From assembly GCF_001316245.1 (NCBI RefSeq), contig NZ_BBDM01000012.1, positions 21,576 to 85,575 of the forward strand: a stretch of 64,000 nucleotides of DNA. Direction: 5' to 3'. Positions 12,558-40,210 of the stretch are shown piece after piece. The position numbers and the translations under genes were made by a program. Within the stretch, counting starts at the first letter, position 1. Each line of letters starts with the position of its first letter. The notes below the pieces were generated by a model. The model worked only from the letters and a program-made list of their open reading frames with translations. It had not been told where the DNA came from and did no database searches. The stretch is from Vulcanisaeta sp. JCM 14467 (GTDB taxonomy: Archaea > Thermoproteota > Thermoprotei > Thermoproteales > Thermocladiaceae).

Positions 12558-13951
12558 ATGGCGAACATGGACAAGTTATCGAAGTGTGTCGAACTACTTA
12601 GGTCAGAACCCTTAATGATTATTGGTAGTAATACTATGGGAGACTCATGTATTGAAATACCATTACCGACAAGAGACTTTGGATCTCACTTCTTAGATAC
12701 TGGGCTTATGGGTAAGGCAATGGAGAGTATTGGGTTTTTCTTTAATGGAAAGGCAAAGGTTGTTTTCTCAGGTTCTACTGGGAGTATAAGATGCGTATTA
12801 ACGGCCTATGGACTATACTCTCGACAATTTAAGAAAGCCCGTGTTATTGCTGTTTCCCCATTTCATAAATCCATTGTTGATTCCATGTTCTTAATACTCA
12901 ATGGTAGAGAGGATATTAATATTAGGTATGTTGGACCAAGTGATGAAGATTATTTAATAGATTACGATATGCTAATCCAGCCAGGAATCTTTAGGATTAA
13001 GCATTATATCAATAACGATAACTATGATAATACATTAATTATAATTACATCACCTACCTATGGAGGTGTTTATATTAACGATGATTATGTAAATGCGATT
13101 AAGACACTTTTAGGAGATAATGCTCTTATCTTTATTGATAATGCGTGGGGCCTTGGGAAGCCAAATATTGAGATGTTCGATGTACTTGTTAGAAGTAGCC
13201 ATAAGGTTGATGGTGGTCCACGCCCAATATCATTAATAATAAGCAGAAATGACGAGTTCTGGAATTACATAAGAATTGCATATTCAATGTTAGAATCAAC
13301 ATCACCATTAGTATGCTCATTATTTGAAACAGAACGTATTTATAGAATACATAAAAAAATGCGACCTCGCCGGTATTTTAAGAGAACTTGGAATTAGATT
13401 CATTGATTCGTTAAAAGATAATGGCCTTAAAGTCCTTGATCGCGTAAATAGAGAGGGATTTTTCATTGATCCAGTGCAAATAAATATCAATACTGGAAGT
13501 AAGAATGGTTATGATGTTCATAATATATTGCTACGGCACGGCATAATACCCGTAAGGGCCGGACCTAGGGCCATTGAGATATTAATTAGCATTGATTTGC
13601 TACGGAAATACTATGATAATCCGTATCTAATTAATGAGGTGAGTAATGTAATAGCAGGCGCAATTGATAATGCTGAACGCAGAGAAATTGAACCGGTATT
13701 TAATTATAACTATGATATTGAGGAGGATGTAACTGGTATTTTAAATAGACGAAAAATAAAATTTGTAGATATTAATGAATCCCTAGACGCCATAGCCGCT
13801 GCGCCGTTAGTCCCATACCCACCTGGTGTACCTGTGGTAATTCCAGGAGCAGTAATAACAAAAAAATGTTTTAGAATATATTAAGTCAATACGAACATTA
13901 GGAGGATACGTAATCAATGTTATTGATAATAAGATACCGATTTACGAATAA
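12558..13951 (+). CDS. Orn/Lys/Arg decarboxylase-family PLP enzyme (2 frameshifts)
   Basis: Group III (fold-type I) PLP-dependent enzyme of the Orn/Lys/Arg decarboxylase family. Visible features: FSGSTGSIRCVLTA for cofactor phosphate binding, SPTYGGVYIN, FIDNAWG with the PLP-ring Asp, SSHKVDGG with the Schiff-base Lys near residue 220, and the family C-terminal block PLVPYPPGVPVVIPGA. Two A7 runs (about 13360 and 13860-13866) break the frame. Reading each as A6 restores ETERIYRIHKKCDLAG and VITKNVLEYIKSIRTLGGYV up to the stop at 13949-13951. It sits at the edge of the H4MPT island, so a role there (amine precursor of methanofuran) is possible but only inferred; polyamine synthesis is the alternative. 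Confidence 0.75.
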
Positions 13952-13966
13952 TCATTGTTTAAATCA

Positions 13967-14975
13967 TTAATTAGAGTATTGAATGATTGCTCCCCTATTT
14001 CGTGCTTTCGTAACGAAATACAACATGTCATATCCTTTTTTCTCAATGTCTTTTCTTACGTTAGATAAAACCTTCATTGCTTGCCGTTGTCCCTTGATAA
14101 TACCATATGCTGTTGGGCCCCAACTACTTTGTCCTGCACCGTAGGCACCATGCCTTAAGAGGGATTTTATTACGAACTCGGTTTCGTCACAGCAATATAT
14201 GCCACCCTGATATTTAGAGAAATATTGACCAACGAGTGCCTGTATTTTCGTTAATGCATTTCCAAATGTCTTAATATCATTCATGGTAATTGAGGGTATT
14301 AAATATAATAGTAGTAATTTGTATAATTCATATTTTAATTCCTTAGGGAGGGAGCTTGGCACATCCATTGCCTTTCTTTCTGCCAATTCATCAAGCCCAA
14401 TCCTTTGCTTAGGTATGAACACTAGAAAGTACCAATCATTAGGCACTTTAACCCTAAATATTGGATAGGGTAAATCATTTATGCTCTTAGGAAGTTCTAC
14501 GCGCGTACTATTAAGCGGTAAGCGTCTACCTGAATCAACTATAAAACCTCCTCGCTCAAATGATGCAATACCTATACCCGAATCTCTGCCTCTACCGAGT
14601 ATTACTGCTAATTCCCTAATTTTAATCTGCTTATTCAGCAGTCTCATTATTGCGGCACCAATAGCTAAACTCATTTGCGTAGTAGAGCCTAAACCAACAT
14701 GCCTAGGGATTGCCTCCGTAATATTTATTTTAAGTCCAGGTAGTTCCTTATTTACTGAATCACGTACTTTCTTAATGACATTATCAATTATATCATTCAC
14801 CTCAATATCTGTTTTATTTACAATAATTAATTGAGAATCCTTCAATATACTCACTGTAATGCTTATCTTAGGTACTTCAATACTAACGCCTATGCTTCCA
14901 TAAGCTATATTATCCTCTAAAAAAATTATAAAAACCGAGGTGCAGCCTCGCTGATGCTTCAACAACGACCTCCAT
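13967..14975 (-). CDS. mptG: Beta-ribofuranosylaminobenzene 5'-phosphate synthase (RFAP synthase)
   Basis: Committed step of H4MPT biosynthesis: condenses 4-hydroxybenzoate or 4-aminobenzoate with phosphoribosyl pyrophosphate, releasing CO2 and PPi. GHMP-kinase-like fold: PRHVGLGSTTQMSLAIG near residue 95, RDSGIGIASFERGGFIVD, and the C-terminal HGAYGAGQSSWGPTAYG. The true start is ATG 14975 (MEVVVEASARLHLGFYNF). A T7 run in the sense strand (A7 at about 14919-14925) shifts the frame, and T6 joins it to LEDNIAYGSIGVSIE. Followed upstream in the same orientation by the pterin-binding protein with an 18-nt gap, so the two form an operon for the arylamine end of H4MPT. Confidence 0.88.
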
Positions 14976-14993
14976 AACTTTAATAATAAATCC

Positions 14994-38771: not shown

Positions 38772-38797
38772 GCTTAATCACCGGTATGCAGCATCTT

Positions 38798-38805
38798 CTT
38801 AAATA
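38798..38805 (-). promoter_or_regulatory. TATA box of fae
   Basis: TATTTAAG on the minus strand, about 27 nt before the expected start site, so fae likely has its own promoter rather than depending on glyA. Confidence 0.5.
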
Positions 38806-38916
38806 TTAAAGCATTACTCCTCTAATAATTATAAAAAATAACTATATATCGATGAATATATTATTTCATGTACAATTATGACAAATTATTAAATAATTTC
38901 GAGGAAATTATTGTAA

Positions 38917-40210
38917 TTATACGAGAATCCTAAGATCAATGTCAACGCCTACATCCTTTGGGTGAAATCCATACTTAATCATCGTGAACTCCCTTCTAAA
39001 TTCAATGACTTCTTTCCTCACATTGCCTGAGTCTTCACCCTTAATTAATACCCTAGCCATGAACTCAGCGATTGCCTTCATTTCGTCCTTGCCCATTCCG
39101 AATCTTGTCATTTCCTGAACACCAAGTCTTAGCCCACTTAATTCGCCCCTAAATGCTTTGTCCCACGGTAGTGCGGTTTTGCTTACGATTATATTAGCCT
39201 CCTCAAGCAATGCTGCCGACTTAGCGCCGCCACCTAATTTAGCAACATCGACAAGTACTTGGTGAGTCCTTGTAAATCCCTTATTTTCAGCAACTACGTT
39301 AAACCCTAACGCATGTAGCTCCTCGGCTAAGGTCCTCGCATTCTCGACTATTTGCTTAGCATAGGCCTCACCGAACTTCATCATCTCTATACCGTCACGG
39401 CTGTTGCGGCATACCTATGGTGATGATAATTAGATGTTAAGCCGGGGAATACCGCCTTCTGTATTTTGCTAAATAACTCCTCATTATTTGTGAAAATGAT
39501 CCCTCCTGAGGACCAGGGAAGGTTTTATGAGTTGATGATGTCATAATATCAGCACCTAGCTCAAGTGGATTTGGAAATGCCTTACCAGCGATTAAGCCAA
39601 GTACGTGGGCTGAATCATGAAGTAATACGGCATTAACCTCATGAACAGCATCAAGAAGCTCCCTAACTGGGTGCGGAAATAAGTATACGGAGCTGCCCAG
39701 TATTACAATCTTCGGCTTAACTTCCCTTATCAACTTTATACTCTTATCAACATCTACATTAAATTCGTCATTATCCCAGGGTAAATTCATTACCTTTAAT
39801 CTTAAGATACCGGGTGCGCCATTGGCTCTATGACTTATGTGTGAACCTGCCGTTATTGGTATTGAGAGTATTGTGTCGCCAGGCTCCGTCAACGCCGCAT
39901 AGACTGCGGTATTAGCTATGGTGCCTGATATAGGCCTTACATCAACAAACTTTGCGTGAAATAATTGTCTCATTATATCTGTGAGCAAACCCTCAAGGGC
40001 GTCAATGTACTTAGTCCCTTGGTAATACCTATTACCTAACGTACCTTCTGCGTACCTACCCTCCATGTCGTTTAGATAGACGTACTCCGCCAGTGGACTC
40101 ATCACGTTTTCGCTGGCTATTAGATTTATGGATTCCAGCCTACGCCATCTATTATGTACTTTAACAAGGTCCAAAACCCTACTTAGTGCTGAATCGATAT
40201 CTAACGACAT
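38917..40210 (-). CDS. glyA: Serine hydroxymethyltransferase (probably H4MPT-dependent), 2 frameshifts
   Basis: PLP enzyme exchanging a C1 unit between serine and glycine via methylene-H4MPT in archaea. N-terminal ESINLIASENVMSPL and YYQGTKYIDALE, HDSAHVLGLIAGKAF, and the PLP Lys in MTSSTHKTFPGPQ (about residue 221). Two breaks, each a lost G: near 39505 (repair GPQGGIIFTNNEELFSKIQKAVFPGL) and near 39390 (repair AVTGIEMMKFGEAYA). The restored protein is about 430 residues. Upstream of fae in the same direction, tying the C1 pool to amino acid metabolism. SHMT is essential, so its breaks argue for sequence error. Confidence 0.93.

What the first reader, a model, noticed from the sequence alone, without database searches (positions are those of the whole stretch)
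12558..40210. Complete H4MPT-linked C1 pathway island in a crenarchaeon
One 28-kb stretch encodes Fae, MtdB, Mch, Ftr and FwdABCD plus most synthesis genes for H4MPT (MptA, MptD, MptE, RFAP synthase, DHPS-like protein, flavoprotein reductase, MptN) and methanofuran (MfnB, MfnD-like, MfnE, MfnF). No mcr, mtr, mer or F420-dependent mtd gene is seen. The combination is that of methylotrophic bacteria, but with an archaeal Fwd enzyme. It predicts formaldehyde oxidation to CO2, or CO2 fixation into serine, in a non-methanogenic hyperthermophile. I cannot tell from here whether it has been described.
Basis: partly seen in the sequence, partly recalled or inferred. Interest (0 to 1): 0.95.

Follow-up and report, generated by a model that had tools for sequence, protein, structure and literature searches.

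The report
Transplanted one-carbon oxidation island in Vulcanisaeta
A hot-spring archaeon of the genus Vulcanisaeta carries, on both sides of a pterin-synthesis gene, about 25 kb of extra genes that eight sequenced sisters lack at that spot and that were likely acquired from other archaea; together they are predicted to oxidise formaldehyde- or serine-derived one-carbon units to CO2 on methanogen-type cofactors, in a cell in whose draft genome the methane-making gene mcrA was not found.

Summary
The genes are real. The host is a Vulcanisaeta MAG. In eight sister genomes whose locus was read, S4e and DNA ligase lie 1.5-2.2 kb apart with glyA (and mostly mptE) between; here they lie 27.9 kb apart, with an 11.8-kb block (H4MPT synthesis, MtdB) and a 13.6-kb block (Ftr, FwdDBAC, Mch, methanofuran synthesis, Fae) on the two sides of mptE. 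Among 45 genomes of the order only this one has Fae. Its Ftr groups with Ignisphaera/Desulfurococcaceae Ftr, not with other Thermoproteales (AU p=1.5e-13). GlyA groups with a different Vulcanisaeta lineage than the flank genes, so the interval was probably exchanged within the genus. Split genes look like draft indels: frame changes are about as frequent in the flanks, and one split gene is intact in another assembly. No mcrA, Mer, CdhC or glycine-cleavage P-protein was found. Likely role: oxidation of formaldehyde or serine C1 to CO2; cofactors and activity are untested. H4MPT/methanofuran genes in Thermoproteales and Ignisphaera were already listed in print (PMC5020050); the island's assembly, transfer and truncation did not turn up in my ten literature searches.

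The parts
11226..12470 (+). Left flank: ribosomal proteins L24P and S4e
   Evidence: Pfam; 78-97% identical and in the same order in 8 sister Vulcanisaeta loci
12558..13884 (+). PLP enzyme, Orn/Lys/Arg decarboxylase-like, split by a frame change; possible stand-in for the missing tyrosine decarboxylase MfnA (speculative)
   Evidence: PF01276 below cut-off and PF03711 above; intact 463-aa version on a 1,353,555-bp contig; six proteins found in all, that one included
13967..14965 (-). beta-RFAP synthase (H4MPT synthesis)
   Evidence: TIGR00144 above cut-off; no match in the 11 other genus genomes
14994..16572 (-). DHPS-like protein, split by a frame change
   Evidence: PF14251, PF20123, TIGR00284 below cut-off; one 564-aa ORF in L191 of Ignisphaera sp. 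Bin S33
16623..17393 (+). DmrX-like dihydromethanopterin reductase flavoprotein
   Evidence: TIGR02700, 196 bits, below its cut-off of 251
17433..18344 (+). CofE-like (F420 ligase family) protein
   Evidence: PF01996; relatives beside C1 genes in L091 and L184
18350..19229 (-). Nucleotidyltransferase-like family, group B, split by a frame change
   Evidence: single 288-300 aa ORFs in L079, L188, L094, L091
19268..20175 (-). MtdB, NAD(P)-type methylene-H4MPT dehydrogenase, split by a frame change
   Evidence: PF09176; extent; tree
20235..20930 (-). HisA/HisF-related protein of C1 clusters
   Evidence: TIGR00734, below cut-off
21193..21591 (+). MptD dihydroneopterin aldolase
   Evidence: PF04038
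21619..22275 (+). DUF447 protein
   Evidence: PF04289 just below cut-off; 45% identical neighbour of DUF1464 in L191
22235..23387 (+). DUF1464 protein, with frame changes
   Evidence: PF07318; 63% to an L191 ORF
23457..24401 (+). MptA (FolE2-type GTP cyclohydrolase)
   Evidence: PF02649
24414..25058 (-). MptE, resident gene between the two extra blocks
   Evidence: PF01973 below cut-off; same place and orientation in 6 sister loci, 73-79% identical
25179..26114 (+). Ftr formylmethanofuran:H4MPT formyltransferase
   Evidence: PF01913/PF02741; tree and AU test
26127..26450 (+). FwdD-like molybdopterin dinucleotide-binding piece
   Evidence: PF01568; one ORF with FwdB in L091
26410..27858 (+). 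FwdB, catalytic subunit with FeS cysteines and the W/Mo-ligand cysteine (CHGP)
   Evidence: TIGR03129; alignment to 5t5i_B; residue roles recalled
27855..29581 (+). FwdA amidohydrolase subunit, split by a frame change
   Evidence: TIGR03121; alignment to 7bkb_G
29578..30432 (+). FwdC
   Evidence: TIGR03122
30429..31398 (+). Mch cyclohydrolase, split by a frame change
   Evidence: PF02289 in both pieces
31405..32304 (-). MptN-like ATP-grasp ligase
   Evidence: NF040720, 228 bits, below its cut-off of 350
32420..33508 (+). Nucleotidyltransferase-like family, group A
   Evidence: weak PF01909, below cut-off; conserved beside C1 genes; AF2 model pLDDT 91.9
33495..34391 (+). CitG-like protein
   Evidence: PF01874
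34512..35606 (+). MfnD-like ATP-grasp
   Evidence: PF02655; NF040722 66 bits, far below cut-off
35738..36459 (+). MfnB, split by a frame change
   Evidence: PF04476; extent from tblastn
36495..37094 (-). MfnE
   Evidence: PF00696; NF040622 below cut-off
37066..38181 (-). MfnF
   Evidence: TIGR03123 above cut-off, NF040623 below
38247..38771 (-). Fae formaldehyde-activating enzyme, stand-alone
   Evidence: PF08714; 1y5y/1y60; 74-81% to Fae of f50, f15 and Ignisphaera sp. Bin S33 genomes
38917..40210 (-). GlyA serine hydroxymethyltransferase at its resident place, but an allele of another Vulcanisaeta lineage; frame changes
   Evidence: PF00464; synteny; trees and AU tests
40325..42147 (+). Right flank: DNA ligase, native, one frame change
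   Evidence: Pfam; 93-99% identical over its C-terminal part in 8 sisters

Best explanation
Two gene blocks, likely acquired by lateral transfer, flank the mptE gene of a Vulcanisaeta chromosome, and their products are predicted to carry formaldehyde- and serine-derived C1 units on H4MPT and methanofuran to CO2. Shown by the calls: eight sister genomes have the site without the blocks; the blocks carry Fae, MtdB, Mch, Ftr, FwdABCD and most cofactor-synthesis genes; Ftr is closest to Ignisphaera/Desulfurococcaceae forms, and MtdB to that of one other Vulcanisaeta MAG and then to such forms. Predicted chemistry (inferred from the families): Fae joins formaldehyde to H4MPT and GlyA delivers the C1 unit of serine, both giving methylene-H4MPT; MtdB oxidises it with NAD(P)+; Mch hydrolyses the methenyl form; Ftr hands the formyl group to methanofuran; FwdABCD oxidises it to CO2, giving low-potential electrons to an unknown acceptor, probably ferredoxin. 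No gene found would let the C1 unit go on to methane (mcrA), methyl-H4MPT (Mer) or acetyl-CoA (CdhC), so CO2 on one side and serine/glycine on the other are the likely ends. The glyA allele is of another Vulcanisaeta lineage than the outer flanks, so the island-bearing interval was probably exchanged within the genus by recombination in the conserved neighbouring genes.
For: Gene content. FwdB keeps the FeS cysteines and aligns a cysteine with the CHGP cysteine of 5t5i_B and with an X (selenocysteine by recall) of 9sfi_Q, whereas 6s6y_B (bacterial Fhc by recall) matches only query residues 284-456. Empty site: 8 sister loci run S4e to ligase with no island, 6 of them with MptE in place; the gap is 2.1 kb in G015 against 27.9 kb here. 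Rarity: Fae in 1 of 45 genomes of the order, Ftr in 1 of 12 genus genomes, RFAP synthase in 1 of 12. Origin: Ftr in a 100/99 clade with six Ignisphaera/Desulfurococcaceae-type rows, AU p 1.5e-13 against joining other Thermoproteales; MtdB 100/100 with Vulcanisaeta CP.2020 and four Ignisphaera/Desulfurococcaceae-type rows; shared gene order Ftr-FwdD-FwdB-FwdA-FwdC-Mch. Composition: block 1 GC 39.6%, its five 2-kb windows at the 0-2.3 percentile of 130 genome windows. Not visibly decayed: frame changes 0.42 per kb in the island, 0.39 and 0.57 in the flanks (rough count); intact PLP enzyme on a 1.35-Mb contig. glyA exchange. No mcrA, Mer, CdhC, GDC-P in this genome.
Against: Block 2 composition is near the host's (2-31 percentile), and one native right-flank window is as odd as block 1 (1.5 percentile), so for block 2 a foreign source rests on the Ftr tree and gene order. 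RFAP synthase, MptA, MptD, CitG and the PLP enzyme have no close Ignisphaera relative in the stretches fetched, so their source is open. MptB, MfnA and MfnC are not identified. The MAG is 81.6% complete, so absences are not proof, although its 2.44 Mb matches complete sisters (2.3-2.4 Mb) and low completeness may come from frame errors. No formaldehyde source was looked for or found. Another Vulcanisaeta MAG (G023) has HisAF-MtdB-NTase-DmrX in the same order on a 3.65-kb contig of 48% GC, but no Fae, Ftr or RFAP synthase match; so block 1 may be older in the genus than its composition suggests. The flank-gene tree behind the glyA conflict has moderate support (89/93). Fwd reactions are reversible (recalled).
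Confidence: 0.72

Rival explanations
1. Reductive use: FwdABCD fixes CO2 and the formyl group is reduced by MtdB to methylene-H4MPT, which GlyA adds to glycine to make serine and C1 units for biosynthesis.
For: Fwd, Ftr, Mch and MtdB chemistry is reversible (family knowledge); a GlyA gene sits next to the island; the Bathyarchaeum tardum paper says the branch might run either way (PMC10477458, one passage).
Against: No glycine cleavage P-protein in this genome or 5 other Vulcanisaeta, so glycine must come from elsewhere; no Mer or CdhC; Fae has no clear role in this direction.
Confidence: 0.2
2. Ancestral pathway of Thermoproteales kept here and lost in sisters, not a lateral gain.
For: Other Thermoproteales have Ftr (5 genomes of g3, and G001); PMC5020050 argues for losses in Ignisphaera.
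Against: Ftr of this genome does not group with those Thermoproteales (AU p 1.5e-13); six sisters share one compact S4e-MptE-GlyA-ligase order; the two blocks lie on both sides of MptE; odd composition of block 1.
Confidence: 0.1
3. Assembly chimera or contaminant DNA joined into a Vulcanisaeta contig.
For: Draft MAG with many indels; composition of block 1 differs; no read data available.
Against: Vulcanisaeta-type genes on both sides and in the middle (MptE) at the syntenic place, so four false joins would be needed; the Ftr cluster counts 12 member sequences and the PLP enzyme's 7, with one contig of 1.35 Mb whose organism is not told; a second Vulcanisaeta MAG has a syntenic stretch with 81% identical MtdB.
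Confidence: 0.05
4. Formaldehyde detoxification only: the cell uses Fae and the rest to clear formaldehyde, with no energetic role (an overlap with the best explanation, same chemistry).
For: No C1 substrate dehydrogenase is seen in the island (not searched genome-wide); Fae is stand-alone.
Against: A large set of cofactor genes and FwdABCD is a costly way to detoxify; cannot be separated from catabolism by sequence.
Confidence: 0.25

Closest known systems
Ignisphaera/Desulfurococcaceae H4MPT-methanofuran gene set (seven genomes: G202, G236, G327, G313, Ignisphaera sp. Bin S33 = G403, Desulfurococcaceae KUA_Bin13 = G371, Bin S23 = G405)
   Same: MtdB in all seven; stand-alone Fae in 6 of 7, not KUA_Bin13; Ftr-FwdD-FwdB-FwdA-FwdC-Mch order in G202, G236, KUA_Bin13 and Bin S23, the ones read there
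   Different: 6 of the 7 also have CdhC, absent here; genes lie in several places where read; no insertion around mptE-glyA seen
H4MPT-linked formaldehyde oxidation of methylotrophic bacteria
   Same: Fae, MtdB-type dehydrogenase, Mch, Ftr and Fwd/Fhc homologues; CitG- and DUF1464-like neighbours in some bacterial loci (L098, L107, L111)
   Different: Here FwdB keeps the metal-ligand cysteine and FwdD is present, as in archaeal CO2-forming Fwd; bacterial Fhc is a hydrolase giving formate (recalled)
Bathyarchaeia archaeal Wood-Ljungdahl methyl branch
   Same: MtdB-type dehydrogenase, Ftr, Fwd, Mch
   Different: G109 also has Mer and CdhC, and its Fae lies in a 490-aa frame
H4MPT/methanofuran C1 genes in Thermoproteales listed by Chistoserdova 2016 (PMC5020050)
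   Same: Same kind of genes in the same order of archaea
   Different: No Vulcanisaeta island, insertion site or lateral source in the text that I read (part 1 of 3 and found passages)

Membership tests
H4MPT/methanofuran-linked C1 oxidation pathway | Fae, MtdB, Mch, Ftr and Fwd/Fhc encoded in one genome | tested here: met
H4MPT/methanofuran-linked C1 oxidation pathway | Cofactor synthesis genes for H4MPT and methanofuran | tested here: inconclusive
   Many found; MptB, MfnA, MfnC not identified among island ORFs and not searched genome-wide
H4MPT/methanofuran-linked C1 oxidation pathway | Cofactors present and enzymes active | not testable with these tools
   needs cells or purified protein
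Archaeal redox-active FwdABCD (W/Mo) | FwdB with 4Fe-4S cysteines and Cys/Sec metal ligand, plus FwdA, C, D | tested here: met
   Alignment with 5t5i_B and 9sfi_Q; FwdA HxH, Lys, His and Asp positions aligned with 7bkb_G; residue roles recalled
Methanogenesis or anaerobic methanotrophy | mcrA | tested here: not met
   0 of 20 genomes including this one; control rings in 2 methanogens
Archaeal Wood-Ljungdahl (acetyl-CoA) pathway | Acetyl-CoA synthase CdhC | tested here: not met
   none in this genome or 5 other Vulcanisaeta; present in 12 of 20 tested
Archaeal Wood-Ljungdahl (acetyl-CoA) pathway | Mer methylene-H4MPT reductase | tested here: not met
   no match in this genome; a MetF-like reductase was not searched
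Laterally acquired genomic island | Empty site in close relatives | tested here: met
   8 sister loci
Laterally acquired genomic island | Gene trees that conflict with the host's | tested here: met
   Ftr and MtdB; other island genes not treed
Integrase-borne mobile element | Integrase, transposase or other mobility gene in the inserted stretch | tested here: not met
   none among the ORFs annotated at 12558-38771; so not filed as such an element

The most novel reading that the evidence does not exclude
A pathway together with its own cofactors has been transplanted between archaeal orders in two blocks around a resident pterin gene, then passed between Vulcanisaeta species by homologous recombination in the flanking ribosomal-protein and ligase genes, taking the matching serine hydroxymethyltransferase along; this turns a sulfur-metabolising heterotroph into a C1 oxidiser and is a present-day replay of the ancient transfer that gave bacteria methylotrophy.
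Probability: 0.35. Interest if true: 0.75.

Novelty: new variant of a known kind. Interest (0 to 1): 0.62.

Why it matters
How H4MPT and methanofuran, two many-step cofactors, and the enzymes that need them ever moved between lineages is an old question behind bacterial methylotrophy. Here the event looks young enough to see the empty site, the two blocks, the resident gene left in the middle, a linked allele swap, and near relatives with and without it. It would also add a C1-oxidising branch to a genus known as sulfur-linked heterotrophs (recalled).

Tried and rejected

Literature: ten searches gave no paper on such a Vulcanisaeta island; I saw listings, plus passages or sections of the papers named in the report. 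PMC9635834 and PMC3035270 were searched for terms without a relevant passage; PMC11237513 passages did not concern this. The library lacks most subscription papers.
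Full report
Observation. The window is contig C12:21576-85575 of a 2.44-Mb, 25-contig MAG, 81.6% complete and 2.9% contaminated. The genus is Vulcanisaeta: G023 of the same genus is the record Vulcanisaeta sp. CP.2020.15m.Bin.6, and G019's 2,432,148-bp contig has the length of the one that carries the GlyA named V. souniana.

Empty site. I read the locus in 9 of the 11 other genus genomes. In eight, S4e and DNA ligase lie 1.5-2.2 kb apart: S4e-MptE-GlyA-ligase in G015, G016, G017, G018, G019, G020; S4e-GlyA-MptE-ligase in G024; S4e-GlyA-ligase in G023. 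In the ninth (G025) only the ligase matched in the 20 kb read. G021 and G022 were not read out to S4e. Here the gap is 27.9 kb. The extra DNA is 12558-24401 (11.8 kb) between S4e and MptE and 25179-38771 (13.6 kb) between MptE and GlyA.

Rarity. Fae: 1 of 45 genomes of the order. Ftr: 7 of 45, being this genome, five of genus g3 and G001. RFAP synthase: 5 of 45 above cut-off, no match at all in the 11 other genus genomes. Phylum sample: MtdB domain 53 of 398, Fae 79 of 398, both 45 of 398. Of those 45, six have Fae in a frame under 200 aa (this genome, four of f50, one of f15); the others have frames of 345 aa or more, consistent with Fae-Hps fusions (fusion name recalled).

Relatives. The same gene order Ftr-FwdD-FwdB-FwdA-FwdC-Mch is found in Ignisphaera/Desulfurococcaceae genomes, with MptN next to it in L091 and L094 and MtdB nearby, at 39-76% identity. 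It is also found, more diverged, in G001 and G269. Ignisphaera names for f50 rest on contig-length matches (95,538 bp for G236, 96,271 bp for G327). The Ftr tree (31 of 33 rows collected; two duplicates of the same genomes dropped) puts the window with six such rows (100/99), and joining it to the other Thermoproteales is rejected (p 1.5e-13). The MtdB tree holds 52 of 110 collected rows plus the window's piece; second hits of a locus, forms of 420 aa or more and all but 15 of the rows numbered L110 and above were dropped. It puts the window with Vulcanisaeta CP.2020 (100/98), then with four Ignisphaera/Desulfurococcaceae-type rows (100/100), inside a Bathyarchaeia-rich clade; other Ignisphaera-type genomes have a different MtdB clade. 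So Ftr and MtdB have different histories. Other island genes were not treed.

Two blocks. Block 1 has GC 39.6% and tetranucleotide distances of 0.27-0.31, above the largest of 26 genome chunks (0.254); block 2 has GC 43.6% and 0.17-0.18, within the range. One 2-kb window of the right flank is also low (1.5 percentile), so GC alone is not proof. Ignisphaera-type stretches have 35-43% GC.

Draft quality. Frame changes per coding kb: left flank 0.57 (8 genes), right flank 0.39 (22 genes), island 0.42 (19 genes with a usable reference). The count is rough: it misses some splits seen in the ORF list, on both sides (pfkB in the flank, FwdA in the island), and one island change is FwdD/FwdB, which is one ORF in L091 and may be two genes here. 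The split PLP enzyme is intact in P0121 (463 aa; longest contig 1,353,555 bp).

glyA. Outer flank genes (methyltransferase, L24, ligase C-part, concatenated) put the host with G015/G016/G017/G020 (89/93, moderate). GlyA does not go there: both its N- and C-terminal pieces group with P0127 and near other lineages, and AU tests reject placing it with the host's sisters (p 6e-57; 4e-102 without G016; 2e-81 for the C piece). MptE is 73-79% identical to the six sisters that hold it at this place, while G015 shares 83-87% with the other five, but its tree is unresolved. I read this as exchange of the interval within the genus; the direction is unknown, and G023 and G024, of the nearer GlyA lineages, have no island at this locus.

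Mechanism. FwdB keeps its FeS cysteines and the ligand cysteine, FwdA its metal-site motifs, and Fae aligns along its length with 1y5y. With no mcrA, GDC-P, Mer or CdhC in the genome, the likely flow is formaldehyde or serine C1 to CO2. GDC-P was found in 1 of 20 genomes (G169), Mer in 6 of 20 (4 above cut-off), CdhC in 12 of 20. The electron acceptor of Fwd, the formaldehyde source and three cofactor steps are open.

Known work. Chistoserdova 2016 (PMC5020050; part 1 of 3 of the text and found passages read) lists Thermoproteales and Ignisphaera among Crenarchaeota with at least some H4MPT/methanofuran genes and says some Ignisphaera have them and some not. Culexarchaeia (PMC9723716, passages) have portions of the H4MPT branch, one MAG with Fae. 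Bathyarchaeum tardum (PMC10477458, one passage) has the archaeal branch. None of the passages read describes this island.

Noticed in passing
window 32420-33508 and 18350-19229; L173 2075-3088, L171 2167-3228, L094 14824-16933: A nucleotidyltransferase-like family (GS and DxD motif, OB-like C-terminal part in group A) with three groups beside H4MPT/methanofuran genes, one of them next to Fae in Ignisphaera-type genomes; possible missing cofactor-synthesis step.
   Followed up: partly
G007, G008, G009, G010, G011 (genus g3, same family as the window): All five have Ftr (four of them two copies) and no Fae; four are listed without MtdB, G009 is not listed; the three tested have a Mer match (below cut-off in G010) and CdhC but no mcrA: a further C1 lineage in this family.
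   Followed up: partly
window 12558-13884: PLP enzyme with only six proteins found in a 5.8-billion-protein collection, itself included, all at least 73% identical.
   Followed up: partly
L091, about 7130-8890: FwdD and FwdB appear as one 590-aa ORF in Desulfurococcaceae KUA_Bin13.
   Followed up: no
L023, L026, L081 versus L027, L030, L031: Ignisphaera-type genomes carry one of two distant MtdB types; G313 differs from its own genus mates.
   Followed up: no
window 58001-62000: Strong negative GC skew (-0.35, -0.31), in a stretch of minus-strand genes.
   Followed up: no
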